From positions 1-64,000 of the forward strand of contig JAFXVJ010000015.1 in the NCBI GenBank assembly GCA_017524615.1: a stretch of 64,000 nt of DNA, read 5' to 3'. Of this stretch, positions 458 to 15,882 are shown in pieces (position 1 is the first letter of the stretch; the number at the start of each line of letters is the position of its first letter). Source of the stretch: Clostridia bacterium (lineage in GTDB: Bacteria; Bacillota; Clostridia; Christensenellales; Aristaeellaceae). Position numbers and translations under genes: made by a program. The notes under the pieces are model-generated. The model was not told the origin of the DNA, searched no databases, and saw nothing but the letters and a program-made list of their open reading frames with translations.

Positions 458-1237
458 TTATCCCAGGGTCACATCCAGGATCATCATCACCACAAAGCCC
501 AGCGCAAAGGTGACGGTGCCCATATTGGAGTGCTTGCCCTCCGACATCTCGGGGATCAGTTCCTCCACCACCACATACATCATGGCCCCGGCGGCGAAAG
601 ACAGAAAATAGGGCATGACCGGCGTCACCAGCCCGGCGGCCAGGAGGGTTGCCAGGGCGGCGATGGGCTCCACCGCGCCGGACAGCACGCCCATCCAGAA
701 GGTCTTTGCTTTCGGCATGCCCTCCGCCAGCAGCGGCATGGAGACGATGGCTCCTTCCGGGAAGTTCTGGATGGCGATGCCCAGGGCCAGCGCCAGGGCC
801 CCGGCGGCGCTGATGCCGGTGTCTCCGGCGAGGAAGCCCGCGTACACCACTCCCACCGCCATGCCTTCCGGGATGTTATGCAGCGTGACTGCCAGGATCA
901 GCTTGGTGGTGCGCTTGAGCCTGCTCTGCGGGCCCTCATGCTGTTTGTCCATGTGCATGTGCGGGGTCAGCATGTCCAGCGCCAGCAGGAAGCCCATGCC
1001 GATCAGGAATCCGATGGCCGCGGGCAGGAAAGCCAGCGAACCCATATCCGCGCTGCTGTCCAGGGCGGGCTGCAGCAGGCTCCAGAAGGAAGCCGCCACC
1101 ATGACCCCCGCCGCAAAGCCGGTCAGCGCTTTCTGCACGACAATCGAAATCTGTTTTTTCAGAAAGAACACCATCGCCGCGCCCAGGCCGGTGCCCAGGA
1201 ACGGGATCAGGATGCCTTCCGCAATCTGAATGTTCAT
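458..1237 (-). CDS. ZIP-family divalent metal transporter
   Basis: The product is a 259-residue integral membrane protein of the ZIP family (ZupT/GufA-like), which normally brings Zn, Fe or Mn into the cytoplasm. The two metal-site helices are recognisable as HNIPEGMAVG and NFPEGAIVSMPL, and a His-rich loop HMHMDKQHEG precedes the first, as is usual for the family. The ATG at 1237 is preferred over the in-frame ATG at 1258 because AGTGAGG sits just upstream of it. The gene is last in a leftward operon with an ABC ATPase/permease and two regulators, opposite an iron-uptake operon. The metal carried cannot be read from sequence. Family assignment is firm. Confidence 0.9.
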   Translation of the reverse strand: MNIQIAEGILIPFLGTGLGAAMVFFLKKQISIVVQKALTGFAAGVMVAASFWSLLQPALDSSADMGSLAFLPAAIGFLIGMGFLLALDMLTPHMHMDKQHEGPQSRLKRTTKLILAVTLHNIPEGMAVGVVYAGFLAGDTGISAAGALALALGIAIQNFPEGAIVSMPLLAEGMPKAKTFWMGVLSGAVEPIAALATLLAAGLVTPVMPYFLSFAAGAMMYVVVEELIPEMSEGKHSNMGTVTFALGFVVMMILDVTLG

Positions 1238-1304
1238 CAGTGCCGCCTCACTTGACATCTGTCAGCAGGGATCCCGGCTGGTCCGGCTGGCAGGCTTTGA
1301 TCGG

Positions 1305-3599
1305 TCATTCCTCCGTTTTCAGCGCCGCCACCATGTTGATGTGCCGGTTTTTGCGGGCCACCATCAGGCCCACGACCAGGGAAACGCCGAAGGTCAGGAA
1401 AACGCTGATGAACCAGGTGGCCGGGCCCAGCACCAGTTTCAATTCATACTCAGAGGCCAGGGCGGTCAGCAGATATTGCAAAACGCCCACGCCCATGGGC
1501 ACGCCGATCAGGATGCCGATCACCGTCAGCCACAGGTTCTGGCTGATCAGCAGCCGCCCGATCTTTCCATCCTTGAAGCCCACCACCTTCAGGGTCGCCA
1601 TTTCCCGGTAGCGTTCGGTGTAGCTCATCACGCCCAGGTTGTACAGCACCACGATGCCTAAGATCACCGCCGCCAGCACCAGCAGCCAGATCATTTTGTT
1701 CATCAGGTCCATGAAGGTGTCGAAGGAATCCATGATGGATTGCTTGCTTTGCCTGTTCAGGATGCGGCTGTCCTCAGGGATGTCCGCTTCGTCGGTGAAC
1801 ACGGAGGAAACGGTGTAGGAGATGCCGGTCTGATCGGCGAAAGCTGCGGTCATGAACACGCCCTCGGTCATGGAATCCAGCACGCCCGCCACGGGAACGA
1901 CGTAGTGCTCGTCGCTGTCATAGGGGGAGAAGGACAGCGTATCCCCGGCTTTCAGATGATGATCCCGGGCGATCCGGCCGCAGATATATGCCCCCTCGTC
2001 CGTCAGGGGCACGATGCGCATGTCGGTGTCGGCAAAGCGCACCTTGTCCTGGGTGACGGAATAGATTTCCAGCGCGTAGCCTTTATCGCCGATCTGGATG
2101 GCGCGGGAGGCGGCCCAATCGCCGTTCAGCTTTTCCGCCATGGCTTTGCCTTCCTCCTGCGTCATATTGTCGCTGTCCAGGTTGACGCGCGTGGTATAGT
2201 TGATGGCCTTTTCATAGAACACGTCCAGGAAGGCGTTCATGGTGTCCTGCATGCCCAGGCCGCCCACCAGCAGCACCATGCAGCCCACAATGCCGAACAG
2301 CGTCATCAGGCTCCGCGCCTTGTGGCGCACGCAGTCCCGCAGATTCCATTTGGTGCCGAAGCCCAGGGCCTTGAACCGCTTGGTTTCTTCAAAGCGCAAA
2401 TGCTTCATGCGCCGGGGCGTATAGGGCCGCAGGGCGTCCGCCGCCGTGCCGGAGAGCATCTTGCGGACCGACAGGAAGCCGATCAGCGTCAGGAAAGCGT
2501 TGATCCCGATCAGCACGTACCAGGTGAACCGCGGCGCGTGCAGGGCCCAGGAGGGCATGTCGATGTACGTTGCCATGGCCCCGTTTGGGTTCATGATGAA
2601 CCAGCCCAGCCAAAAGCCGATGCCGATGCCCAGCACCGTGCCCATCAGGCCGATGATCAGGGCGTAGGCGGAATAATGGATCAGGATGCGCCGATCCTTG
2701 AAGCCCAGGGCCTTGAAGGTGCCGATCTGCGTTTTTTCGCTGGCGGTAATGCGGTGCATGGTGGTCACCATGGTCAATATGGCGATGGCCAGGAACAGCA
2801 CCGGCAGGATGGAGGCCATGGTTTTCCCCTCGTTGACTTCGCCCATCGCTTCCGACCAGGACACGGTTTCATCCTTGGAGAGGATCAGCCGGGTGCTGCC
2901 CAGGGCCTTGTCCGCCTGCTCCACGAAAGCGGCCTTGTCCAGGGCGGATTTTACGTTGATCTGATGGTACAGGGAGCCGGCCATCATTTTATACAGAGAA
3001 GGAATGGCCCGGTCCAGCATTGCCGGGGAGATGTACACATAGCCGTAGGAGGAATAGTCCGGCATCATCTGGGTGGTGTCCGGCAGGCAGATCAGGTATT
3101 CGCTGGATTTCACCAGGCCCTTGACCGTGCCCGTGACGGTGATCGTTTGATAGGTCAGCGTCAGTTCATCGCCCAGGGAAATCCCGTTGGCGTCCGCGTA
3201 GGAATCGGACAGCCAGAAGCCGTCCGGGGATGCTTCATCATACGGTTCACCCGCCATGAGCAGGATGCCCGATACGTTCATGTTCTCGCTGACGGTCAGG
3301 GCCAGGGTGTCGGATTCGTCCTTCACCGCCACGTTCAGCGACAGGAAGCGGGTGGCGTCCTCCACGCCGGGGATGGCCTTCACGGCCTCCAGGTCTTTTT
3401 CCGTAAAGCCTTTGTCGTTATAGATGCGGAAATCGGCAAAGCCGGTAGCGTCGTAAATCTCCCTGGTGTTGACCTCCAGGGAATACCATTCCACGTTGAA
3501 GCCCAGGAATACGCCGACGCCCAGGGCCACCATGATGACCATGGAAATGAACTGGGCTTTGTATTGCCACAGTGTCCGGAATAATTTCTTCAGCAGCAT
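1305..3599 (-). CDS. Large FtsX-type ABC permease (MacB-like)
   Basis: This 764-residue permease has an N-terminal membrane anchor (about residues 10-30), a large extracytoplasmic domain (about 30-250), a three-helix FtsX core (about 265-400), a second anchor and ectodomain, and a second FtsX core (about 640-760). It is therefore a tandem two-unit FtsX protein, as in many Firmicute lipoprotein or peptide exporters. The ATG overlaps the TGA of the ATPase gene as TGATG, so the two are translationally coupled and very likely form one transporter. Such transporters usually work by mechanotransmission rather than substrate channelling. The substrate is unknown, and the ZIP and DtxR-like neighbours suggest a link to metal or envelope stress. 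Confidence 0.88.
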   Translation of the reverse strand: MLLKKLFRTLWQYKAQFISMVIMVALGVGVFLGFNVEWYSLEVNTREIYDATGFADFRIYNDKGFTEKDLEAVKAIPGVEDATRFLSLNVAVKDESDTLALTVSENMNVSGILLMAGEPYDEASPDGFWLSDSYADANGISLGDELTLTYQTITVTGTVKGLVKSSEYLICLPDTTQMMPDYSSYGYVYISPAMLDRAIPSLYKMMAGSLYHQINVKSALDKAAFVEQADKALGSTRLILSKDETVSWSEAMGEVNEGKTMASILPVLFLAIAILTMVTTMHRITASEKTQIGTFKALGFKDRRILIHYSAYALIIGLMGTVLGIGIGFWLGWFIMNPNGAMATYIDMPSWALHAPRFTWYVLIGINAFLTLIGFLSVRKMLSGTAADALRPYTPRRMKHLRFEETKRFKALGFGTKWNLRDCVRHKARSLMTLFGIVGCMVLLVGGLGMQDTMNAFLDVFYEKAINYTTRVNLDSDNMTQEEGKAMAEKLNGDWAASRAIQIGDKGYALEIYSVTQDKVRFADTDMRIVPLTDEGAYICGRIARDHHLKAGDTLSFSPYDSDEHYVVPVAGVLDSMTEGVFMTAAFADQTGISYTVSSVFTDEADIPEDSRILNRQSKQSIMDSFDTFMDLMNKMIWLLVLAAVILGIVVLYNLGVMSYTERYREMATLKVVGFKDGKIGRLLISQNLWLTVIGILIGVPMGVGVLQYLLTALASEYELKLVLGPATWFISVFLTFGVSLVVGLMVARKNRHINMVAALKTEE

Positions 3600-4300
3600 C
3601 ACCAGTCCACCTCTTCCGCGGACAGGGGGTGATCCTGGTTTTCGCAGGACTTGATTTTTCCGTTCTTCACCCGGATCACGGTGTCCGCCATTTTTGCGAT
3701 ATTCTGGTTATGGGTCACAATGATGATGGTTTTGCCCATGTCCCGCGCCATGGACAGGAGGAGCTTGAGCACCATCACGCCGGTCTGGGAATCCAGCGCG
3801 CCGGTGGGCTCGTCGCACAGAAGGATATGCGGGTTTTTCGCAAGCGCCCGGGCGATGGACACCCGCTGCTGCTCGCCGCCGGAAAGCTCCGAGGGGAACT
3901 GGTGGATGTGATCGGAAAGCCCAACGGCTTTCAGCATGTCGTGGCTGCTGAGCGGGTTGGGCGCGATTTCTTTGACCAGCGCCACGTTTTCGATCACGGT
4001 CAGCGTGGGGATCAGGTTATAGCTCTGAAACACGAAGCCGACGGAGGCCGCCCGGTATTCCGCCAGCTCGTTGGGCGTCAGGGTGGAAATATCCTTTCTG
4101 TTCACCAGAATGGTGCCCTCCGTGGGGCTGTCCAGCCCGCCCAGCAGGTTCAGCAGCGTGCTTTTGCCCGCTCCGCTGGGGCCCAGCACCACAATGAACT
4201 TGCCTTCCTCCAGGCTCAGGTTCACATGATCCAACGCCCGCTGTTCGTGCTCGCCGTTCCGGTAAACCCTGGATACATCTTTGAATTCCACAATCGCCAT
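3599..4300 (-). CDS. ABC transporter ATP-binding protein (LolD/MacB type)
   Basis: This 233-residue ATPase shows Walker A GPSGAGKST, signature LSGGEQQRVSIARAL and Walker B ILLCDEPTGALD, the arrangement of the LolD/MacB/FtsE group that partners FtsX permeases. It would energise the downstream 764-residue permease, whose start codon overlaps this stop codon. The start is supported by AAAGGAGAG ahead of the ATG. The spacing of 74 bp from the DtxR-like gene suggests one leftward operon of regulators plus transporter. The substrate is not evident. Confidence 0.92.
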   Translation of the reverse strand: MAIVEFKDVSRVYRNGEHEQRALDHVNLSLEEGKFIVVLGPSGAGKSTLLNLLGGLDSPTEGTILVNRKDISTLTPNELAEYRAASVGFVFQSYNLIPTLTVIENVALVKEIAPNPLSSHDMLKAVGLSDHIHQFPSELSGGEQQRVSIARALAKNPHILLCDEPTGALDSQTGVMVLKLLLSMARDMGKTIIIVTHNQNIAKMADTVIRVKNGKIKSCENQDHPLSAEEVDW

Positions 4301-5365: not shown

Positions 5366-7108
5366 ATGCGGAAAGGGCTTTTCGCCGCAAGGCTGCTTTG
5401 CGGCTTGTTGATTCTCATGTTGCTGCTGCCCATGTGCGTATCGGCCGAGGAAGCGTCTTCCACCCGCTGGGCGGACGCGGCGGACGAAATCGACAAATTC
5501 CTGGACGCGGCCTTTGAAAGCTATCTGGACGGCGACGCGAAAGCCGCCTATGACAATGTAAGCAACGCCTATTTCCGGGTCTATGAAACCACGGGATTCG
5601 AACGGCAGACCATGAGCTACATTTCCGGCAATCGGAAAAACGCGGTGGAAATGCAGTTTTCCGCCTGCAAGGCGGCGGTGAAAAAGGAAAACACCGATCA
5701 GGAAACCATCGTGTCCGTTCGCAGCGCGCTGCAGAAGCTGAAAGCCATGATCCGCGAGGACGGCAACAAGCTGGCGGCCATGCAGGGCGGCGCGCAGAGC
5801 GAAACCAAGTATTACAAGCGCGGCGAACGGGTCTCCGTCGATCCTTACCCCGAATACTCCGCCGATCCCGGCGCGGCGCAGAAGTACGCCAGCTGGTACG
5901 AAGCGGCGACGCTGGTGAAGGAGCTGCTGGACACCGCCTATATGGGCTATCTGGACAAGGACTTTGAAGCCGCCCTGGATAACCTGAACACAGCGTACTA
6001 TTCCGTTTATGAGGAATCCGGCCTGAGCCATAAAATCTATACCGATCTGTCGCTGAAAGACCGCCAGAAAATGGACGGGTATTTTTCCGATCTGCGCGCC
6101 CTGATCGCTTCCGCGTCGGCGAAGTATCAGAAGAATAAATACCGCACCACCACCGACGGGGCCAAGAACCTGATCCTGAAGCAGGCCAAATCCCTGGACA
6201 CCCAGGCGGCGGAAGCGGCCGCGGCGCAGGAGACCGCCCCGGATGAAACGGAGACGCCGGCTGTCTCCAACGAGAGCGCACGGCGCAAAGCGGTTTTTTG
6301 GGGCTCGTTCGGCATCATCGTCCGGGAAGGGCTGGAGGCCATCCTGGTCATTGCCGCCATCATCGCCTATCTGAAAAAGAGCGGCAACGGCAAGAGCCTG
6401 AAAAACGTGTACATCGGCGCTTTGGCCGGTGTGGCGGCCAGCTTCGTTGCCGCCGCCGTGCTGGCCTGGGCGAAGCAGGCATTCGTCGGCGCGGGCATCG
6501 CACAGGAGGTCATCGAGGGCATCACCGCCCTGGTTGCCGTGTGCGTGCTGTTCTATGTGAGCAACTGGATGATCAGCAAGGCGGAAGCCGCTTCCTGGAG
6601 CCGCTACATCGACGGCAGGGTGCAGTCTTCTGTGGAGCAGGGCAGCGCCTTCGCCCTGGCGTTCACCGCCTTCCTGTCCGTATTCCGCGAAGGCGCGGAG
6701 GTCGTGCTGTTCTACCAGCCTTGGCTGGCGGAGGGCAATCCGGACATGGTGTGGGCGGGCTTCGGCGTGGGCTGCGTGCTGCTGGTGTTCGTGTATCTGG
6801 CCATTACGAAGCTGTCCATTAAGCTGCCGATCCGGGTATTCTTCACCGCCACGTCCATCCTGATGGCCGTGATGTGCGTTTCCTTCCTGGGCGGCGGTAT
6901 CAAGGAGCTGGCCGAGGGCAACGTATTCGACCTGGCCCTGCGCGTGCCCGGCGTGCCGGAAAACGACGTGATCCAGATCTTCGGCATTTATCCCTGGCTG
7001 GAAACGCTGCTGCCCCAGCTGATCCTGTCGGTCATCCTGCTGGTCACGTTCCTGATCGCCCATTACCGGGGAAAAATGGACGCTTTGAAAGCGCAGTATT
7101 CCAAATAA
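5366..7108 (+). CDS. FTR1-family high-affinity iron permease with duplicated ectodomain
   Basis: This 580-residue protein has a signal peptide (1-28), an extracytoplasmic helical region and a C-terminal FTR1 permease domain (about 308-572, seven predicted membrane helices). The two hallmark iron motifs are REGLE at 320-324 and REGAE at 441-445. The ectodomain holds two similar units of about 55 residues (38-91 and 179-233; compare AYFRVYETTG with AYYSVYEESG), recalling EfeO/imelysin-like helices. FTR1 proteins move iron coupled to oxidation or delivery by partner proteins. The P19-like protein and DUF2318 protein follow directly, matching the FTR1-P19 arrangement known from Campylobacter. The start has GGAAGGA upstream. 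Confidence 0.93.
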   Translation: MRKGLFAARLLCGLLILMLLLPMCVSAEEASSTRWADAADEIDKFLDAAFESYLDGDAKAAYDNVSNAYFRVYETTGFERQTMSYISGNRKNAVEMQFSACKAAVKKENTDQETIVSVRSALQKLKAMIREDGNKLAAMQGGAQSETKYYKRGERVSVDPYPEYSADPGAAQKYASWYEAATLVKELLDTAYMGYLDKDFEAALDNLNTAYYSVYEESGLSHKIYTDLSLKDRQKMDGYFSDLRALIASASAKYQKNKYRTTTDGAKNLILKQAKSLDTQAAEAAAAQETAPDETETPAVSNESARRKAVFWGSFGIIVREGLEAILVIAAIIAYLKKSGNGKSLKNVYIGALAGVAASFVAAAVLAWAKQAFVGAGIAQEVIEGITALVAVCVLFYVSNWMISKAEAASWSRYIDGRVQSSVEQGSAFALAFTAFLSVFREGAEVVLFYQPWLAEGNPDMVWAGFGVGCVLLVFVYLAITKLSIKLPIRVFFTATSILMAVMCVSFLGGGIKELAEGNVFDLALRVPGVPENDVIQIFGIYPWLETLLPQLILSVILLVTFLIAHYRGKMDALKAQYSK

Positions 7109-7181: not shown

Positions 7182-7736
7182 ATGAAGAAGTTTATCGCTC
7201 TGCTGCTGGCCGCTATGATGCTGCTGTCCATGTCCGCCTTCGGTCTCGCCGAAGAAGAAGCGGGCTTCGATGAATACGAACTGGGCATCGAAGGGGAACA
7301 GGAAATCGGCTTCATGACCATGGCGATGGTTTACTTCCAGCCCGTGGACATGGCGCCCGCCGAGAACGCCACCCCCAAGGAAGGCTCCGACCTGCACATC
7401 GAAGTGGACCTCACCGCCAACGAGAACCCCTACGGCTTCCCCGTGGATGGCTGGGTGCCCTACCTGAGCATTGATTTCGTCATCAAGGATCTGGACGGCA
7501 AGGAAGTGTACTCCGGCTCCATGATGCCCATGGCCGCTTCCGACGGCCCCCACTACGGCAACAACATCCCCCTGCCCGAAGGCGAATACACCATCACCCT
7601 GTACATCAAGAGTCCCGCTGAAAACGGCTACCTGCTCCACGTGGACGCCGAAACCGGCGTGGAAGCCAAGGATGGTTTCTGGACCGAACCCCTGGTCGCC
7701 ACCTGGACCGGCTGGAAGTTCGTCAAGGAATGGTAA
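7182..7736 (+). CDS. P19-type extracytoplasmic iron-binding protein
   Basis: This 184-residue protein has an N-terminal signal peptide cleaved near residue 23 and one domain of the P19/Tp34/FtrA iron-transport family (Pfam Iron_transport). Conserved features include a Met-rich strand MTMAMVYFQPVDMAP, DLHIEVD with His72, and MMPMAASDGPHYGNN with Met and His124, which correspond to the copper/iron site of P19. It would bind iron outside the membrane and hand it to FTR1 just upstream. There is no lipobox cysteine after the signal peptide, unusual if the host is monoderm because the protein would not be lipid-anchored. AGGAGG precedes the ATG. Confidence 0.9.
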   Translation: MKKFIALLLAAMMLLSMSAFGLAEEEAGFDEYELGIEGEQEIGFMTMAMVYFQPVDMAPAENATPKEGSDLHIEVDLTANENPYGFPVDGWVPYLSIDFVIKDLDGKEVYSGSMMPMAASDGPHYGNNIPLPEGEYTITLYIKSPAENGYLLHVDAETGVEAKDGFWTEPLVATWTGWKFVKEW

Positions 7737-7932: not shown

Positions 7933-9228
7933 GTGTTCAAGTATCTCTGGATGGTGACGCAGGACCTGTTCCTGACCATTACCCTGACCACCCTCATGCA
8001 TGTGATGCTGTCCCGGCTGCTTGGTAAAAAGGGACGGACGATCCACGGGATCGCTCTGGGCGTGGGCGTTGCGGCGTCCATTGCTTTGGCAGCCGTGAAA
8101 TTCAACACCAAGCTCATTATTTCCAGTCACTGGAATCATTACATATATGCGGTCATTCTGACGCTGACCCTCCTGATCCTGGTGCTGACGGTATTGTACG
8201 GCCGGAAGGAAAACGGCGGAACGAAGGCGGGGAGGCTGATCCTGGGCATCGCGGGTTCCCTGATGTCCGCCACACTGATTTTCTATTCCCTGCCCGGCGT
8301 GCTGCTGTATCCGTTCAGCTTCAATACCATGGGCCAGGGGTATTTCTCCTCGTATTATCTGGTGCGCATGGCCGGATGGCTGGGCGCGCTGGTGCTGCTG
8401 ATCGTTTATTCGCGCCTGCTTTCCCGATGCGCGCTGGATATAAAGCCCTACGTCCTTGTTCCCACGGCGCTGAATGCCGGGATCCTTACTTTTGCCGTAT
8501 ATTGCTTCGGCCGCTTTTTCGTGCCGTGGGTGAACCGGGCAAAATGGCTGAAATGGCCCGTGAAGTACACCGACGTGGCCTACGGCTGGATCGGCGACTG
8601 GATGATGTTCACCGCCAATTATTCCATGCTGTTCATCTGGATCATGGCGGGCATCGCCGCGCTGCTGGCCCTCCTCCTGTTCCGCCAGGGCACGGTCATC
8701 CGGGAGCCCTATGACAATCCCGCCCAGCTGCGCAAGCTGAAAGCCCGGAACCGGCACTGGCGGCGGGTGGCGGCCGGCGTTCTGGCATGCGTGGCGCTCT
8801 GCGCTGTGATTATGACCGTAGTCAAAACCGACGACACGAAGCAGGTGGAGCTGTCCGCGCCGGAGGCCTATACCGTGGATCAGGAAGCGGGCGTCATTCT
8901 CGTGCCGATGGAAAACGTCAGCGACGGGCACCTGCACCGCTTTGAATACAAAACCGAAAAGAACATCAACGTCCGCTGGATCGTGGTGAAAAAGCCCAAT
9001 TCCGCCGCCTTCGGCGTGGGGCTGGACGCCTGTGAGGTTTGCGGCAACGCGGGCTACTTCGAGCGCAGCGGGCAGATCATCTGCAGGCGCTGCGACGTGG
9101 TCATGAACATCAACACCATCGGCTTCAAGGGCGGCTGCAATCCCATTCCCATGCCCTATGAAGTAAAAGACGGAAACCTTGTTTTCAAACTGAGCGACAT
9201 CATCGCAGGCGAAAAAGAATTCCGATAA
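7933..9228 (+). CDS. DUF2318 Fe-S-containing membrane protein
   Basis: This 431-residue protein has seven or eight membrane helices (about 1-250), a further helix near 280-296 and a C-terminal extracytoplasmic DUF2318 domain (about 305-425). The domain carries CEVC (367-370), CRRC (384-387) and Cys402 in GFKGGCNP, the family's presumed metal or cluster ligands. In FTR1-P19 loci this family sits beside the permease and is thought to supply or accept electrons, as the FtrD-type ferredoxin does in FtrABCD systems. The start is GTG with GGGGG upstream; an in-frame ATG at 7951 is possible. Family assignment is firm and the redox role is inferred. Confidence 0.88.
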   Translation: MFKYLWMVTQDLFLTITLTTLMHVMLSRLLGKKGRTIHGIALGVGVAASIALAAVKFNTKLIISSHWNHYIYAVILTLTLLILVLTVLYGRKENGGTKAGRLILGIAGSLMSATLIFYSLPGVLLYPFSFNTMGQGYFSSYYLVRMAGWLGALVLLIVYSRLLSRCALDIKPYVLVPTALNAGILTFAVYCFGRFFVPWVNRAKWLKWPVKYTDVAYGWIGDWMMFTANYSMLFIWIMAGIAALLALLLFRQGTVIREPYDNPAQLRKLKARNRHWRRVAAGVLACVALCAVIMTVVKTDDTKQVELSAPEAYTVDQEAGVILVPMENVSDGHLHRFEYKTEKNINVRWIVVKKPNSAAFGVGLDACEVCGNAGYFERSGQIICRRCDVVMNINTIGFKGGCNPIPMPYEVKDGNLVFKLSDIIAGEKEFR

Positions 9229-9287: not shown

Positions 9288-10583
9288 ATGTTATTCCGTA
9301 TGATCCGCGGCGTGCTCTTTCATCAGAAGGGCAAAATGCTATTGATCGCGCTGACCATCGCCCTGGGCGCGTCCCTGGCCACGGGGATGCTGAACGTGGT
9401 GCTGGGCGTGGAAGAAAAGGTCAATAAGGAACTGAAAAACTACGGGGCCAACATCACCGTAAAGCCCAAGGATTCCTCCCTGCTGTCCGACATTTACGAC
9501 GTGGGCGAAGGGGCGGAGCTGAACGCCGCCTACCTGCGGGAGGATGAGCTGGGCAGGCTGAAAACCATTTTCTGGGCCTTCAACATCGTGGACTTCACGC
9601 CCTTTTTAGACGCGCAGGTTACGCTGCCGGACGGAAGCCAGGCCAAAATGGTGGGCACCTGGTTCAACCACCATCTCGACCTGCCCACGGGCGAAAGCCT
9701 GGACGCGGGCGTGATTGGCATGCGTTCCTGGTGGGATGTGACGGAAGGCCGCTGGCTGGATGAAAAGGACGAAAACGCCGCTTCCGAAATCATGGTGGGC
9801 GCGCTGCTGGCGCAGAAAATGGGCTGGCACGCGGGCGATACCGTGCATATCGCGGCCTCCCAGGGCGAAAAAGACGTGACCATCGCGGGGATCTGCGACG
9901 CGGGCGGCGACGAGGATGAACAGATTTTTGCCATCCTGGATCTGGTGCAGGCCCTGACCGGCCGGGAAAACAAGGTGGCCTCCATCGAGGTATCCGCCCT
10001 GACCACCCCGGACAACGATCTGGCCCGCCGGGCGGCCCGCAATCCCGCCGCGCTGTCCAGCCGCGACTATGAAACCTGGTATTGCACGGCCTACGTCAGC
10101 GCCATCTGCTATCAGATCCAGGAGGTCATCACCGGCTCCGTCGCCAGCGCCGTGCGCAAGGTGGCCGAGAGCGAGGGCACGATCCTGGATAAAACCAAGC
10201 TGCTCATGATCCTGATCACGGCCCTGAGCCTGATCGGCTCGGCCCTGGGCATTTCCAACCTGGTCACCGCCTCCGTCATGGAGCGCAGCCAGGAAATCGG
10301 CCTGCTCAAGGCCATCGGCGCGCGGGATCATTCCATCACCGGCGTGGTGATGACGGAGATATTGATCACCGCGCTCCTGGGCTTCGGGGCCGGGTATTTC
10401 CTGGGCTTCGGCTTCGCGCAGCTCATCGGGCACAGCGTGTTCTCATCGGCCATCGACATGAATCCCAGGGTCGCGCCCATCGTGGCGGGGCTGATCGCCC
10501 TGGTCACCGTCGCGGGCAGCCTGCCCGCCATCCGGCAGATTTTGCGGCTGCGTCCCGCGGAAGTGCTGCACGGGGGAAGGTAA
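9288..10583 (+). CDS. FtsX-type ABC permease 1 of the iron locus
   Basis: This 431-residue permease has one N-terminal membrane anchor (about 12-34), an extracytoplasmic MacB-like domain (about 35-290) and a C-terminal three-helix FtsX core (about 305-425), including SVMERSQEIGLLKAIGARD, the typical conserved loop. It follows the DUF2318 gene and precedes a second FtsX permease and the ATPase at 12103. This order equals the two-permease/one-ATPase set next to FTR1-P19 in Campylobacter. It probably heterodimerises with the next permease. Its substrate or mechanical target is unknown. Confidence 0.9.
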   Translation: MLFRMIRGVLFHQKGKMLLIALTIALGASLATGMLNVVLGVEEKVNKELKNYGANITVKPKDSSLLSDIYDVGEGAELNAAYLREDELGRLKTIFWAFNIVDFTPFLDAQVTLPDGSQAKMVGTWFNHHLDLPTGESLDAGVIGMRSWWDVTEGRWLDEKDENAASEIMVGALLAQKMGWHAGDTVHIAASQGEKDVTIAGICDAGGDEDEQIFAILDLVQALTGRENKVASIEVSALTTPDNDLARRAARNPAALSSRDYETWYCTAYVSAICYQIQEVITGSVASAVRKVAESEGTILDKTKLLMILITALSLIGSALGISNLVTASVMERSQEIGLLKAIGARDHSITGVVMTEILITALLGFGAGYFLGFGFAQLIGHSVFSSAIDMNPRVAPIVAGLIALVTVAGSLPAIRQILRLRPAEVLHGGR

Positions 10584-10637: not shown

Positions 10638-12098
10638 ATGACCAAACGAAGAATGTTTCTGCGCATGATTACGGCATCCTTGCTGCGCAGAAGATCGCGG
10701 ATGCTGATCGCGCTTTTGTCCATCGGCATCGGAGCCACGATTTTAGCGGGCCTGGTGACCATCTATGTGGACGTGCCCCGGCAGATGGGCGCGCAGTTCC
10801 GCTCCTACGGCGCGAATATGCTGCTGCTGCCCAAGGATGGGGAAGCGCTGAACAGCGAAAGCCTGGAGGACGCCCTCAAGGCCATCCCGAAGGATGCGCT
10901 GGTGGGCGCGGCCCCCTACCGCTACGTGCGGCTGGATATGACCACCCGGCAGCAGTCCTTTACCGCCGCGGGCACGGATTTTGCCGAAATCACCAAAACC
11001 AGCCCCTATTTCAGCGTGGAAGGCGCGTATCCCAGCAAAACCCGGCAGGTGCTGGCGGGCAAGGAAATCGCGGACACCATCGGCGTGAAGGTCGGCTCCA
11101 CCATGGAACTGACTTACCAGCCGACGAACAATGCAGCCAGCAAAACCCCGGAGGAAAGCCGCGTGCCCGGCGCAAGCCTGTCCGGCAAGGCGGAGGGCTT
11201 CGGCGGCGGGACCGTATATGTCAGCGCGGTGCTGGATGAGGAAAAGAAGATCGCGTCCCTTTCCGTGGACGCCTCCACCCAGACCCCGGAATACGGCGGG
11301 CGCGTCCCGGAGGATGAATCGTTTCTGAATCAGTTCATAGGAAAAACCCTGCCGCTGACCCTGGGCGACGGCGTGGACGCGTTTACCGGCGCGACGGTCA
11401 CGTCGAAAGCGGTGGTGGACGCGCTGAACCAAGCTACGGAAGCGGCGGTTTCCGTTCAGCCCAAGACCATGAATTTCACCGTGACCGGCATTCTGACCAC
11501 CGGCGGCGAGGAAGAAGGCTATGTGTTCCTCTCCCTTCAGGACATGGAAACCATGACCGGCGAGGACCGCCTGGACGTGGCGGAGCTTTCTGTCTCCGCG
11601 GGTGTGGACCAGCTGGAAGCCTACGCCGACACGATCACGGAAAACAGCGGCAGCGTCCAGGCCCGGCTGGTCAAGCGCGTGGCGCGCTCCGAGGCGTCGG
11701 TGCTGGAAAAGCTGACGGCGCTGGTGTTCCTGGTCACGCTGGTCGTGCTGCTCCTGACCATGATCTGCGTCAGCACCACCATGATGGCGGTGGTGTCCGA
11801 GCGCAGGCGGGAAATCGGCCTGCGCAAAGCCCTGGGCGCGTCGGACGGCTCCATCCGGGCGGAATTCCTGGGCGAAGGGCTGTTCCTGGGGCTGCTGGGC
11901 GGCGTGATGGGGGCCGTCCTGGGCTTTGCGTTCGCCCAGGTGGTGAGCGTCCATGTGTTCGGCTCCTCCATCACCTTCCAGCCCTTGCTGCTGCCCGCCG
12001 CCATCCTCGTGTCCATGGCAATCGCGGCGGCCTCCTGCCTGCTGCCCATCAAACGCGCCGTGGCGATTGATCCGGCCATCGTATTAAAAGGAGAGTAA
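10638..12098 (+). CDS. FtsX-type ABC permease 2 with inserted FMN_bind domain
   Basis: This 486-residue permease has an N-terminal anchor (about 20-44), a MacB-like ectodomain and a C-terminal FtsX core (about 355-480). Residues about 180-270 form an FMN_bind-type domain: GFGGGTVYVSAVLDEEKKI begins it, and it ends in DAFTGATVTS at 247-256. That matches the motif where ApbE attaches FMN to threonine in NqrC and RnfG, with Thr255 as the predicted acceptor. The ectodomain is therefore likely a covalent flavoprotein facing outside the membrane. No apbE gene is present in the window. Good ribosome binding sequence GGAGGG precedes the ATG, and the ATPase gene follows after 4 bp. Confidence 0.85.
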   Translation: MTKRRMFLRMITASLLRRRSRMLIALLSIGIGATILAGLVTIYVDVPRQMGAQFRSYGANMLLLPKDGEALNSESLEDALKAIPKDALVGAAPYRYVRLDMTTRQQSFTAAGTDFAEITKTSPYFSVEGAYPSKTRQVLAGKEIADTIGVKVGSTMELTYQPTNNAASKTPEESRVPGASLSGKAEGFGGGTVYVSAVLDEEKKIASLSVDASTQTPEYGGRVPEDESFLNQFIGKTLPLTLGDGVDAFTGATVTSKAVVDALNQATEAAVSVQPKTMNFTVTGILTTGGEEEGYVFLSLQDMETMTGEDRLDVAELSVSAGVDQLEAYADTITENSGSVQARLVKRVARSEASVLEKLTALVFLVTLVVLLLTMICVSTTMMAVVSERRREIGLRKALGASDGSIRAEFLGEGLFLGLLGGVMGAVLGFAFAQVVSVHVFGSSITFQPLLLPAAILVSMAIAAASCLLPIKRAVAIDPAIVLKGE

Positions 12099-12102
12099 AG
12101 CT

Positions 12103-12777
<675 letters not shown>

Positions 12778-12966: not shown

Positions 12967-13359
12967 ATGAAAAAACAGATGATTCCCGCAATCATCCTAT
13001 TGATTCTTTCAGTTGTCATTATCCTTGGCAGCCAAACCTTCCTGTCCCCCTGCGTCCATGAGGACGGCTCCTTCGGCCCCTGCCACTGGGCGAGGCAGAC
13101 GCTGCTGGGATCGGGCTGCGTTCTGGGCATCATGGCGGCCTTTGCCCTATGCGTGGAGCATGCTCGCCTGGGAATTTATCTTGGCGCTTTGCCTGTGTGC
13201 GCCTTGGGCATCCTGACCCCGGGCACGCTGATTGACCTGTGCCGCATGAGCACCATGCGCTGCCGGATGGTGATGCAGCCCGCCATGATCATCCTGTTTT
13301 CCGCGGCGCTGCTGTGCGCCCTGATCGGCGTGCTTTTGAACGCAAGAAAGAGATCATGA
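12967..13359 (+). CDS. DUF4418-family small membrane protein
   Basis: This 130-residue protein has four predicted membrane helices (about 5-25, 42-63, 65-85 and 101-124). It matches the DUF4418 family, with a conserved extracytoplasmic SPCVHEDGSFGPCHWA segment containing paired Cys and His and a later LCRMSTMRCR pair. Those residues could bind metal. DUF4418 genes recur beside FtsX permease/ATPase pairs in Clostridia. It has strong GAGGAGG before the ATG and overlaps the next permease by ATGA, so it is probably part of that transporter. The function is unknown. Confidence 0.8.
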   Translation: MKKQMIPAIILLILSVVIILGSQTFLSPCVHEDGSFGPCHWARQTLLGSGCVLGIMAAFALCVEHARLGIYLGALPVCALGILTPGTLIDLCRMSTMRCRMVMQPAMIILFSAALLCALIGVLLNARKRS

Positions 13360-14561
13360 CCATGAAGCATTTTTCTTTGTCGCTGAAAAACCTGATCCGC
13401 AAGCCCGGCCGCACCGGGACGCTGGCCCTGCTCACCGCTTTCCTGGCCCTGGCGGTGTTCGGCGGGTCGGTGGTGGTGCTGTCCCTGCGCAGCGGGCTGA
13501 ACAGCCTGGAAGCCCGTCTGGGCGCGGACATCATCCTGGTGCCCTCCGAGGCGCAGAGCAAGGTGAGCTTTCAGAACATGTTCCTGCAGGGCACCACCGG
13601 CGCGTTTTACATGGACGCCTCCGCCCTGGACAAAGCCCTGGAGGTGGAAGGCGTGGAAAAGGCCGCGCCGCAAACCTTCCTGGCCTCCCTGAAGGCCGAC
13701 TGCTGCTCCATCAAGATTCAGGTGATCGGCATCGACCCGGAACTGGATTTCACCGTCCAGCCCTGGATTGCCCGCAGCCTGACCCGGGAATTGGGCGATA
13801 TGGACGTGGCCGTGGGCTGCAAGGTGGAAGCGGACGTAGGCGAAATCATCCGCATCTATGAGCAGCGGTGCAAGGTGGTGGCCCGCCTGGAAGCCACCGG
13901 CACCGGCCTGGATACGGCGGTGTACTGCAACATGGATACCATGAACGCCCTGCTGGCAGCCGCCGAGGAAAAGGGCGTCAGCCATAAGATCGAAAGCGGC
14001 GATTCCGTCATTTCCGCCGTGTACGTGAAGGTGAAGGACGGCTGCGACATCGACGCCGTGAACAATCGGCTGAACGGCCACATCCGCAAAGTCACCGCCG
14101 TGCGCACCCGCAGCATGATCACCGGCGTATCCGACAGCCTGGCGGGCGTCAGCCGCACGGTGACGATCCTGATCGTATCGGTTTGGGCGCTGGCGTTCTT
14201 CATTCTGCTGCTGGCGTTTGTGCTCATTATCCGGGAGAGGGCAAGGGAATTTGCCGTGCTGCGCTTGGTGGGCGCGTCCCGGGGGATGCTGGGACGCATG
14301 GTGCTGCTGGAATCCGCGCTGTGCGGGCTGCTGGGCGGCCTGATGGGGGTGGGGCTGGCGGCGCTGCTGCTCTTTCCCTTCGCGCAGCTCATTGAAAGCG
14401 CTTTGAAGCTGCCCTATCTGATGCCGGATGCGGGCAGGGTGCTGCTGCTGGCCGCTGGAACCGTGCTGCTGGCCGTCACCGTGGCGGCGCTTTCCAGCGT
14501 GATCGCGGCGTATCGCCTGAGCCGGATTGATCCCGGCACGGCGCTGCGGGAGGGGAACTGA
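13356..14561 (+). CDS. FtsX-type ABC permease 3 of the iron locus
   Basis: This 401-residue permease has an N-terminal anchor (about 20-42), an extracytoplasmic domain (about 45-280) and a C-terminal FtsX core (about 285-395) with RERAREFAVLRLVGASRG. The ATG at 13356 is chosen because it overlaps the DUF4418 stop as ATGA; the open frame extends upstream to 13239 but that part would overlap the previous gene. An in-frame ATG at 13362 is also possible. The following ATPase starts 1 bp after its stop, so DUF4418, permease and ATPase form a compact coupled unit. The substrate is unknown. Confidence 0.88.
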   Translation: MTMKHFSLSLKNLIRKPGRTGTLALLTAFLALAVFGGSVVVLSLRSGLNSLEARLGADIILVPSEAQSKVSFQNMFLQGTTGAFYMDASALDKALEVEGVEKAAPQTFLASLKADCCSIKIQVIGIDPELDFTVQPWIARSLTRELGDMDVAVGCKVEADVGEIIRIYEQRCKVVARLEATGTGLDTAVYCNMDTMNALLAAAEEKGVSHKIESGDSVISAVYVKVKDGCDIDAVNNRLNGHIRKVTAVRTRSMITGVSDSLAGVSRTVTILIVSVWALAFFILLLAFVLIIRERAREFAVLRLVGASRGMLGRMVLLESALCGLLGGLMGVGLAALLLFPFAQLIESALKLPYLMPDAGRVLLLAAGTVLLAVTVAALSSVIAAYRLSRIDPGTALREGN

Positions 14562-14562
14562 C

Positions 14563-15249
14563 ATGGCCGTGAAAGCAGAAAACATCTCCAAACGGTATTT
14601 CCGTAAAACGGGCGGCGCCAATTATTTCTATGCGGTGAAGCCGATAACCCTTACGATTGAAGCCGGTGAAGTCGCCGTGCTCACGGGCCGCAGCGGCAGC
14701 GGCAAAACCACGCTGCTGAATATGCTCTCCGGGCTGCTGAAGCCCACCGAGGGCCGGGTTTGGATCGACGGTGCCGACCTGTACAGCCTGGACGACAGGG
14801 CCCTTTCCCGCCTGCGCGGCGAAAGGATCGGCGTAGTGCCCCAGGGCCGCAGCGCCATCGACACCCTGACCGTGCTGGAAAACATCCTGCTCCCGGCGAA
14901 GCTGTGCGGGAAGCCTCTCCCCATAGAAGCCGCTTCGCAATGGATGGAAAGGCTGGGCGTCGCGCCGCTCCGGGACGCCCGCCCCGCGGCGCTCTCCGGC
15001 GGGGAACTTCGCCGCATGGCCATCGTCCGCGCCCTGGCGCAAAGCCCGGATATCCTGTTTGCCGACGAGCCCACCGGCGACCTGGACGATGAAAACACAA
15101 ATCTGGTATTGTCCGCGTTTCGCGATTATGCCCACGAACAGAAAAAGGCCGTTTTCGTGGTGACCCACGAAAACAGCGCCTTGCAGTATGCCGATATGAT
15201 TTACAGGATGGACGGCGGCCAGATCATCTCATCCGCGGAACCGAAATAA
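14563..15249 (+). CDS. ABC transporter ATP-binding protein 2 of the iron locus
   Basis: This 228-residue ATPase has Walker A GRSGSGKTT, signature LSGGELRRMAIVRAL and Walker B ILFADEPTGDLDDEN. GGGAGGGG immediately precedes the ATG at 14563, which I preferred to the upstream in-frame ATG at 14527 inside the permease gene. It pairs with the permease ending 1 bp earlier. It is the last gene of the rightward iron operon, and the DtxR gene on the other strand ends 12 bp downstream. Confidence 0.92.
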   Translation: MAVKAENISKRYFRKTGGANYFYAVKPITLTIEAGEVAVLTGRSGSGKTTLLNMLSGLLKPTEGRVWIDGADLYSLDDRALSRLRGERIGVVPQGRSAIDTLTVLENILLPAKLCGKPLPIEAASQWMERLGVAPLRDARPAALSGGELRRMAIVRALAQSPDILFADEPTGDLDDENTNLVLSAFRDYAHEQKKAVFVVTHENSALQYADMIYRMDGGQIISSAEPK

Positions 15250-15261
15250 CAGCGGATGCGG

Positions 15262-15627
15262 TCAATCTTTCCTGATCTGGCCGCAAATGGCCGCATAGGA
15301 TTCCTCGGAAAGGTCGTGCTCGATCTTGCAGGCGTCCTCCCGGGCGATTTCTTCGGGGACGCCAAGCTGAACCAGGTACTTCGTCAGCGCTTTATGCCGG
15401 TCATAGATCCTTCTCGCGATGGCGTACCCTTTATCCGTTAGGGAAATCAGGCCGTCTTCCGCCATGGTGATGTATTTGTTTTCTCTCAGCTTTTTCATGG
15501 CGACGCTGACGGACGGCTTGGTCACGTTCAGCCCAATGGCGATGTCCGTTGATCTGGCGTAGCCTTTCTGTTCCAGCAGCATCAAAATCTGCTCCAGATA
15601 ATCTTCTGCCGACTCATGAATATTCAT
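15262..15627 (-). CDS. DtxR-family iron-dependent repressor
   Basis: This 121-residue protein has an N-terminal winged helix (about 5-65, with LNVTKPSVSVAMKKLRENKYI) and the DtxR dimerisation domain (about 66-121), without the SH3-like third domain. Metal ligands are visible: Glu12, His78, Cys100, Glu103 and His104. The Cys at the first position of the C-x2-E-H motif is as in DtxR/IdeR, while MntR has Glu, so iron is the likelier effector. AAGGGGAG precedes the ATG at 15627; the open frame runs further upstream without support. It converges on the iron operon and is the best candidate to bind the TTAG-N6-CTAA boxes at 5135-5304. Confidence 0.88.
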   Translation of the reverse strand: MNIHESAEDYLEQILMLLEQKGYARSTDIAIGLNVTKPSVSVAMKKLRENKYITMAEDGLISLTDKGYAIARRIYDRHKALTKYLVQLGVPEEIAREDACKIEHDLSEESYAAICGQIRKD

Positions 15628-15882
15628 CGTATACTCCCCTTTGGAATAAAAACCGGGCAGCAAGGCGCGGATGAACCGGTGATGGGATACAGCGCATCCA
15701 ATGGCTGTACGCATCCGGAAAACATACGCACAGGAAACGAGGGTATTATTCCCATCACGCTCGGCGCGCCCGTTCGGGGCCGCCGGGACGGCCAATCGCC
15801 CTTCGGACCGTCTGCTTCGTTATTATACCACATCCGAATGAAAAAATGAATACGTCTATGCAGAAAACCATCGGCAAAAAAG

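What the first reader, a model, noticed from the sequence alone, without database searches (positions are those of the whole stretch)
11175..11447. Flavinylation-type FMN_bind domain inside an FtsX-type ABC permease
The ectodomain of the permease encoded at 10638-12098 contains a segment of about 90 residues ending in DAFTGATVTS, which fits the motif flavinylated on threonine by ApbE in NqrC/RnfG-type proteins. This would place a covalent flavin on a mechanotransmission ABC transporter inside an FTR1-P19 iron locus, next to a DUF2318 Fe-S protein. It suggests the ABC unit takes part in electron transfer, for example iron reduction at the membrane. I know of no established description of this exact combination.
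Basis: partly seen in the sequence, partly recalled or inferred. Interest (0 to 1): 0.85.

Follow-up and report, generated by a model that had tools for sequence, protein, structure and literature searches.

The report
Flavin domain built into iron-uptake transporter
In a group of gut Clostridia, a flavin-carrying electron-transfer domain that related bacteria make as a separate protein beside an iron-uptake system has been built into the outside part of that system's ABC transporter, which suggests that the unexplained transporter takes part in iron reduction.

Summary
Residues 190-267 of the 486-aa permease at 10638-12098 are an FMN_bind domain (PF04205, 43.1 bits, cut-off 22) between MacB_PCD and FtsX, with ApbE motif DAFTGAT at 247-253. 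The acceptor is therefore Thr253, not Thr255. An ApbE and an rnf operon whose RnfG has five FMN_bind stretches lie elsewhere in the genome.

The association is partly known. FTR1-P19 clusters usually carry a redox protein as "seventh gene" after the ATPase: thioredoxin in most Proteobacteria, an FMN-binding protein in Firmicutes and others (Liu 2018; Meheust 2021). New here is that in this family the flavin domain sits inside the permease and the separate gene is gone. None of 79 fused loci (76 distinct) has a stand-alone FMN_bind gene after the ATPase; all 9 unfused loci found in the same class do. The fused permeases form one clade (100/100). The inserted domain resembles those of multi-flavinylated proteins (median 57% identity) rather than the displaced protein (38%); that origin is favoured, not proven (AU p 0.25).

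Best reading: an ApbE-flavinylated electron carrier fixed to the type-VII ABC unit, serving iron reduction at P19/FTR1. Flavinylation, electron donor and iron reduction are inferred. No structure model could be obtained.

The parts
5366..7108 (+). FTR1 iron permease, 580 aa
   Evidence: PF03239, E 1.3e-39; two REXXE motifs (REGLE, REGAE) read in the translation
7182..7736 (+). P19 (Iron_transport), 184 aa
   Evidence: PF10634, E 3.1e-46
7933..9228 (+). FtrD-like membrane protein, 431 aa
   Evidence: PF10080 at residues 329-430, E 1.5e-28; CxxC...CxxC read
9288..10583 (+). permease A (FtsX/MacB type), 431 aa, no FMN_bind
   Evidence: PF02687 and PF12704 only
10638..12098 (+). permease B with FMN_bind inserted in its ectodomain, 486 aa
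   Evidence: PF12704, PF04205, PF02687; hydrophobic segments at about 20-47, 352-388 and 410-475, so the insert lies between TM1 and TM2
11124..11471 (+). insert relative to unfused permeases (about residues 163-278; edges approximate), in the loop between VGSTMELTYQP and MNFTVTGIL
   Evidence: alignment with unfused homologues; gapped matches
11205..11438 (+). FMN_bind domain proper, residues 190-267
11376..11396 (+). ApbE flavinylation motif D247-A-F-T-G-A-T253 (Thr253 = predicted FMN acceptor)
   Evidence: D247, G251, A252 and T253 invariant in 26 of 26 aligned; motif in 99 of 101 distinct fused permeases
12103..12777 (+). ATPase, 224 aa
   Evidence: PF00005; best NCBIfam matches MacB, FtsE, a bacteriocin-export ATPase family and LolD, all below cut-off
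12967..13359 (+). DUF4418 membrane protein, 130 aa; follows the ATPase, where unfused relatives have the FMN_bind gene
   Evidence: PF14387, E 6e-17; gene orders
13356..14561 (+). permease C (FtsX/MacB type); start inferred by eye
   Evidence: PF02687 and PF12704 on 13353-14561
14563..15249 (+). second ATPase; start inferred by eye
   Evidence: PF00005 on 14527-15249
15262..15795 (-). iron-dependent repressor (DtxR family), convergent with the cluster; true start may be further in
   Evidence: PF01325 and PF02742

Best explanation
This is the FTR1-P19 iron-assimilation cluster in a variant where the redox subunit is not a separate protein but a flavin domain inserted in the ectodomain of permease B. 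Proposed working: the permease is inserted with its ectodomain outside; ApbE attaches FMN to Thr253; the flavin, held at the outer face of the permease A/B-ATPase complex, takes electrons from an outer flavin carrier (most plausibly the multi-flavin RnfG of the Rnf complex or another multi-flavinylated protein) and passes them to iron held by P19 or the FtrD-like protein, so that iron can be released and enter by FTR1; ATP-driven mechanotransmission in the MacB-type unit cycles access. Shown by sequence: domain, motif, insertion site, locus, single clade of fused permeases, and absence of the separate FMN_bind gene where the domain is inserted. Inferred: flavinylation (about 0.9), functional replacement of the seventh gene (about 0.8), iron reduction (about 0.55), Rnf or multi-flavin protein as donor (about 0.35).
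For: Domain and motif. Solved relatives: hmmsearch with the fused alignment A1 finds RnfG, NqrC and an FMN4 domain at positions about 172-270, and YtrF, MacB and LolE for the permease part; phmmer with the segment alone gives 3 weak hits of the same kind, E 0.0003-0.01. Replacement: 79 of 79 fused loci with at least 800 bases after the ATPase (76 distinct permeases) lack a stand-alone FMN_bind gene on that strand within 1.5 kb; 9 of 9 unfused loci of the same class (2 in the family, 1 in the order, 6 elsewhere in the class) have one directly after the ATPase, as do 5 of 14 phylum loci. Single clade: with the insert region removed from all rows, 33 fused and 22 unfused permeases separate on one branch, 100/100 (16 of the 80 named loci were used, chosen by hand, and L089 was left out). 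Iron context: FTR1, P19, FtrD-like and permease A all upstream in 53 of 53 named and 15 of 15 family loci with room; a DtxR-family repressor adjoins the window's cluster; deletion of the homologous genes 1651-1656 in C. jejuni is iron-sensitive (PMC6083913, abstract and passages). Flavin chemistry: ApbE and, after one unassigned ORF, rnfGCDEAB, with RnfG of 1097 aa carrying five FMN_bind stretches. The seventh slot elsewhere holds other redox carriers: thioredoxin or FMN protein (PMC6083913 section 10), and a small lipoprotein with two CxxCH in L085 and L087, whose genomes gave no FMN_bind match.
Against: No biochemistry. No structure model: the predictor was busy at all 28 attempts. ApbE and RnfD are so common in the family (136 and 133 of 150) that co-occurrence says little; 2 of 47 fused genomes have no ApbE match (G079, 72% complete; G142, 59%) and 4 of 47 no RnfD match (G076, 91% complete; G103, G141, G142). 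L035 and L119 depart from the motif. No gene recognised in the locus supplies electrons across the membrane. Seven of 14 phylum loci show no redox gene that I recognised after the ATPase, so the redox subunit may not be strictly needed. In Fusobacterium vincentii the FtrD-like/permease/ATPase/FMN_bind genes lie together, but no FTR1 or P19 was recognised in the 3.4 kb before them, so the flavin-ABC unit may not be tied to FTR1-P19 everywhere. The substrate of the ABC unit is unknown (PMC6083913, passages).
Confidence: 0.7

Rival explanations
1. The flavin serves a chemistry other than iron reduction: the ABC unit moves or processes a substrate (chelator, siderophore, thiol, heme or lipid) and the flavin reduces that substrate or keeps the FtrD-like cysteines reduced.
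For: The substrate of the two permeases is unknown (PMC6083913, passages). The Proteobacterial counterpart is a thioredoxin, and the FtrD-like protein carries CxxC pairs. A second permease-ATPase unit is conserved downstream (full downstream set in 51 of 55 named loci with room). In Fusobacterium vincentii no FTR1 or P19 was recognised in the 3.4 kb before the FtrD-like gene.
Against: In the fused loci the content is iron-specific (FTR1, P19, FtrD-like in 53 of 53 and 15 of 15; DtxR-type neighbour in the window). Mutants of the homologous gene sets are affected under iron limitation (PMC6083913, abstract and passages; PMC5449479, passages).
Confidence: 0.25
2. The domain is a structural or regulatory module that no longer carries flavin, or carries it only as a redox sensor that gates the ABC unit.
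For: FMN_bind folds can persist without function. L119 has lost the motif by an in-frame deletion and L035 has A in place of S/T before GAT. The window's domain has TPEYGG where solved RnfG relatives have TPGLG (alignments).
Against: D, G, A and T of the motif are invariant in 26 of 26, where permease identity to the window falls to 60%, and the motif is intact in 99 of 101 distinct sequences.
Confidence: 0.1
3. The insert descends from the cluster's own seventh-gene FMN protein, by fusion of neighbours, rather than from a multi-flavinylated protein.
For: It fills the same role in the same operon. An AU test does not reject fused plus stand-alone domains as one clade (p 0.25, log-likelihood 11.2 lower). 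The domain tree has only 94 columns for 83 rows, its free search was beaten by two of the constrained trees, and in it the fused domains are not one group (3 changes), although one clade is not rejected either (p 0.58).
Against: Best-hit identity 57% median (48-64) to multi-flavin domains against 38% (28-57) to the seventh-gene protein, alignment score 212 against 64 (20 fused domains). Stand-alone domains form one clade of their own (13 domains from 12 loci, 99/84). Profile match 100% over 88 columns against 96.5% over 75 columns. The insertion is inside permease B, upstream of the ATPase, not an end-to-end fusion of neighbours.
Confidence: 0.1

Closest known systems
FTR1-P19 iron-assimilation cluster (C. 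jejuni 81-176 genes 1649-1656 and homologues) with an FMN-binding seventh gene (PMC6083913 section 10; PMC8238504 section 15)
   Same: Same first six genes in the same order (FTR1, P19, FtrD-like, two permeases, ATPase); flavin domain linked to the system; iron reduction proposed there.
   Different: There the FMN-binding protein is described as the seventh gene, after the ATPase; here the domain lies inside permease B, the separate gene is absent and the domain appears to be of another lineage.
Bifidobacterium breve BfeUO-SifABCDE (PMC5449479, passages)
   Same: Two FtsX-type permeases, ATPase, FMN-binding protein SifE; mutants affected by iron chelators.
   Different: SifE is a separate protein, predicted to be membrane-associated.
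Multi-flavinylated proteins and RnfG/NqrC
   Same: Inserted domain is homologous (57% median best identity to multi-flavin domains) and shares the ApbE motif.
   Different: Those are stand-alone carriers or Rnf/Nqr subunits, not parts of an ABC permease.
MacB/LolCE/YtrF type-VII ABC permeases
   Same: MacB_PCD and FtsX domains and sequence matches to solved MacB, LolE and YtrF, with an ATPase beside it.
   Different: None of the 25 solved sequences matched spans both the permease part and an FMN_bind part.

Membership tests
FTR1-P19 iron-assimilation cluster | FTR1, P19, FtrD-like, two permeases, ATPase in this order | tested here: met
   53 of 53 named and 15 of 15 family loci with room have the four upstream genes
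FTR1-P19 iron-assimilation cluster | seventh gene: separate thioredoxin or FMN-binding protein | tested here: not met
   No stand-alone FMN_bind gene in 79 of 79 fused loci; in the window DUF4418 follows the ATPase. Thioredoxin was not searched for by profile outside the window. The domain is in permease B instead, so it is filed as a variant; 7 of 14 unfused phylum loci also lack a recognised redox gene there, so the feature is not strict
FTR1-P19 iron-assimilation cluster | role in iron acquisition | not testable with these tools
   needs mutants
ApbE substrate (FMN_bind protein) | FMN_bind domain over curated cut-off | tested here: met
   43.1 bits against 22
ApbE substrate (FMN_bind protein) | D-x-x-[S/T]-G-A-[S/T] motif in a segment predicted to lie outside the membrane | tested here: met
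   D247-T253; insert between TM1 and TM2; orientation rests on the family's known topology (recalled) and the K/R-rich N-terminus
ApbE substrate (FMN_bind protein) | extracytoplasmic ApbE in the same genome | tested here: met
   lipoprotein-like start read by eye
ApbE substrate (FMN_bind protein) | covalent FMN on the protein | not testable with these tools
   needs expression and mass spectrometry
RnfG / NqrC subunit | score over the RnfG family cut-off, or place in an rnf/nqr operon | tested here: not met
   43.6 bits against cut-off 102; neighbours are not rnf genes. Homologous domain, not an RnfG
Type-VII (MacB/LolCE) ABC permease | MacB_PCD plus FtsX domains and a MacB/LolD/FtsE-like ATPase beside it | tested here: met
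Type-VII (MacB/LolCE) ABC permease | mechanotransmission by ATP hydrolysis | not testable with these tools
   needs biochemistry

The most novel reading that the evidence does not exclude
An ABC transporter that is itself a redox machine: ATP hydrolysis in the MacB-type unit moves a covalently bound flavin between an electron donor at the membrane (multi-flavin RnfG or other) and P19/FtrD-bound ferric iron, so that the 'transporter' carries electrons outside the cell rather than a solute; by homology the same would hold, with a docked thioredoxin or FMN protein, for FTR1-P19 systems in general.
Probability: 0.15. Interest if true: 0.92.

Novelty: new variant of a known kind. Interest (0 to 1): 0.62.

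Why it matters
The substrate and role of the ABC transporter in FTR1-P19 iron systems, which occur in several bacterial phyla, are unknown (PMC6083913). A natural fusion of the redox subunit into one permease, with absence of the separate redox gene, is the classical sign that the two work together: it places the electron carrier on the ABC unit and makes its role directly testable. It would also put a covalent flavin on an ABC permease, a host for this modification that I did not find described in the searches named in the report.

Tried and rejected
Chance match: rejected by Pfam score, conservation and profile comparison with a failing control. Assembly chimera: rejected, because the fusion recurs in 47 of the 49 family genomes with a classifiable permease B (my reading; of its 53 matching genomes, one more is a fragment and three match only by FMN_bind domains of other proteins) and in 80 of 80 named loci (that query was itself fused, so the 80 are selected for fusion). 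Permease A: no FMN_bind. ApbE or Rnf co-occurrence as evidence: dropped because base rates are 136 and 133 of 150. Fur box upstream of FTR1: best 13 of 19 matches to a consensus recalled from memory, no better than five other places in the window. Fusion outside the family: none among the 6 class matches besides the window (391 genomes), the 1 order match outside the family (297 genomes) or 14 phylum loci with a readable permease B (398 genomes); two further phylum loci (L078, L093) gave none. Other phyla were not surveyed except one Fusobacterium record.

Rows dropped before the 79-of-79 count: 9 fused loci with under 800 bases after the ATPase, 8 fused loci without a recognised ATPase, 2 phylum loci without permease B; L010-L039 were not mapped. 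Three pairs in the 79 are the same contig. Trees: searches used 20 fused domains and 13 stand-alone domains (L198 and L199 not put in); searches used 16 of the 80 named loci, chosen by hand; one search kept columns filled in 60% of rows, flagged long branches, and gave its nearest-relative grouping only 95/72.

Full report
WHAT IS THERE. The ORF at 10638-12098 (+) encodes 486 aa. Pfam finds MacB_PCD (23-159), FMN_bind (190-267, E 6.8e-11, 43.1 bits, cut-off 22) and FtsX (365-479). The hydrophobic segments place the insert between TM1 (about 20-47) and the remaining TM segments (352 onward), that is, in the outer domain (orientation from the family's recalled topology). The motif DAFTGAT runs from 247 to 253.

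SURROUNDINGS. The order is FTR1, P19, FtrD-like, permease A, permease B with FMN_bind, ATPase, DUF4418, permease C, second ATPase, with a convergent DtxR-family repressor. The genome (2.55 Mb, 59 contigs, 81.6% complete) gave one ApbE match, and downstream of it, after one unassigned ORF, rnfGCDEAB. The RnfG is a 1097-aa protein with five FMN_bind stretches, over the rnfG cut-off (162.8 bits against 102). Two further proteins combine FMN_bind with FAD_binding_2.

HOW COMMON. In 150 genomes of the family, the window's own included, 53 match permease B. By my reading of that table 47 are fused, 2 are unfused (G061, G121), 1 is a fragment, and 3 match only through FMN_bind domains of other proteins. 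A scan of genome contigs kept the best 80 of 263 relatives; all 80 are fused, and their titles name uncultured Clostridia, many from ruminant gut samples. That query was fused, so this says nothing about the unfused share. Outside the family, the 6 class matches and the 1 order match are unfused, as are 14 of 14 phylum P19 loci with a readable permease B, out of 16.

THE KEY COMPARISON. In the unfused loci of the same class a small FMN_bind gene follows the ATPase directly: 9 of 9 (L040, L041, L193-L199). L040 and L041 begin with lipoprotein-like signals and carry DAITGAT and DAISGAT. In fused loci no FMN_bind gene lies on that strand within 1.5 kb of the ATPase in 79 of 79 with at least 800 bases of room (76 distinct). 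There the ATPase is followed by DUF4418, permease C and a second ATPase (complete in 51 of 55 named and 12 of 15 family loci with room). L194-L199 have the FMN_bind gene in place and permease C nearby. A Fusobacterium vincentii record in another phylum has FtrD-like, permease A, unfused permease B (400 aa), ATPase, FMN_bind protein with a lipoprotein-like start (DAVSGAT), permease C, second ATPase; no FTR1 or P19 was recognised in the 3.4 kb before it. So the flavin domain is found either as the gene after the ATPase or inside permease B, never in both places in the loci read.

ORIGIN. With the insert region taken out of all rows, 33 fused and 22 unfused permeases fall on two sides of one branch with support 100/100. 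In the earlier tree, in which columns filled in at least 60% of rows were kept, the nearest unfused rows are L041, L040 and L193 of the same family and order, grouped at 95/72. The insertion lies in a loop between two conserved strands; the unfused loops shown are much shorter. The inserted domain is closer to the domains of multi-flavinylated proteins of the same family than to the seventh-gene protein: median best identity 57% (48-64) against 38% (28-57), score 212 against 64. Profile probabilities are 100.0 (multi-flavin set), 99.7 (L200 and L212 set), 99.5 (single-domain set) and 96.5 (seventh gene); controls 0.2. The 13 stand-alone domains form one clade (99/84). NCBIfam matches also differ: RnfG models for the fused domain, PplA for the two stand-alone proteins scanned, all below cut-off. 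Against this, an AU test does not reject fused plus stand-alone as one clade (p 0.25); the tree has 94 columns for 83 rows, needs 3 changes for the fused label, and its search was beaten by two constrained trees. Of the proteins in the group labelled multiRnfG, only L200 was seen in an rnf operon; L203, L204, L205, L207 and L212 sit beside an ApbE, and L206 beside neither in the stretch read; of the singleRnfG group L209, L210, L214 and L217 lie among rnf genes and L211 was not seen to.

MOTIF. D247, G251, A252 and T253 are invariant in 26 of 26 aligned sequences. Over 101 distinct fused permeases (126 loci), 99 have D-x-x-[S/T]-G-A-T; L033 has a second, earlier chance match to the wider pattern; L035 reads DTIAGAT; L119 has an in-frame deletion through the motif.

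MECHANISM. I propose that ApbE flavinylates Thr253 outside the cell, that the flavin takes electrons from an outer flavin carrier and passes them to iron on P19 or the FtrD-like protein, and that the ABC unit cycles access. Only domain, motif, site, locus, single clade and the missing separate gene are shown. The seventh slot is a redox slot elsewhere: thioredoxin or FMN protein (PMC6083913 section 10, read in full), and in two Firmicutes loci (L085, L087) a lipoprotein-like protein with two CxxCH motifs (weak Cytochrome_C7 matches, below cut-off) in genomes that gave no FMN_bind match (one of them 83% complete). Seven phylum loci show no redox gene there that I recognised.

WHAT WAS KNOWN. 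Liu et al. 2018 (PMC6083913; abstract, section 10 and passages) report the FMN-binding seventh gene in Actinobacteria, Firmicutes, Spirochaetes and Synergistetes, suggest reduction of ferric iron, show that deletion of 1651-1656 is iron-sensitive, and say that the permeases' substrates are unknown. Meheust et al. 2021 (PMC8238504, abstract and passages) report 260 P19 clusters with an FMN-binding gene; the words 'permease', 'ABC transporter', 'fused' and 'fusion' do not occur in its main text. SifE of B. breve is a separate protein (PMC5449479, passages). Of PMC11334425 I read passages; 'P19' and 'permease' do not occur in its main text. Searches for the fusion showed no title or abstract start describing it; the listed papers were not all opened, and subscription journals and supplements were not covered.

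VERDICT. The fusion is a new variant of a known system, with value as a natural experiment that ties the redox subunit to the ABC permease.

Noticed in passing
L085:8728-9003 and L087:6683-6919: Small lipoprotein-like proteins with two CxxCH motifs directly after the ATPase of FTR1-P19 clusters, in genomes with no FMN_bind match: perhaps a heme version of the seventh gene.
   Followed up: partly
L231:3422-10933 (Fusobacterium vincentii): FtrD-like, two permeases, ATPase, FMN_bind protein, permease C and second ATPase stand together without a recognised FTR1 or P19 in the 3.4 kb before them.
   Followed up: partly
window 12967-15249: DUF4418 plus a second FtsX-type permease and ATPase are conserved after the cluster; permease C and a second ATPase also occur in unfused class loci and in Fusobacterium. 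Role unknown.
   Followed up: partly
L200:9314-12607 (G000:C52): RnfG of 1097 aa with five FMN_bind stretches in an rnf operon next to apbE.
   Followed up: partly
L203, L204, L205, L206, L207: Proteins of about 500-1200 aa with 3 to 9 FMN_bind domains (L204 is cut by the contig end), four of five next to an ApbE and none next to rnf genes in the stretch read.
   Followed up: partly
L119:7072-8535: Fused permease with an in-frame deletion through the flavinylation motif (metagenome-assembled genome).
   Followed up: no
window 458-1258 and 1305-3602 (-): ZIP-type metal transporter and a 765-aa FtsX-type permease upstream of the iron cluster, opposite strand.
   Followed up: partly
L140, L146, L152, L153 (L095, L047, L096 are copies of three of these): An 837-854 aa protein with two FMN_bind domains is encoded on the opposite strand just beyond the second ATPase.
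   Followed up: no
NZ_CP084075.1: A 2.1-Mb Fusobacterium vincentii record labelled plasmid in the plasmid collection; by its size it looks like a mislabelled chromosome.
   Followed up: no
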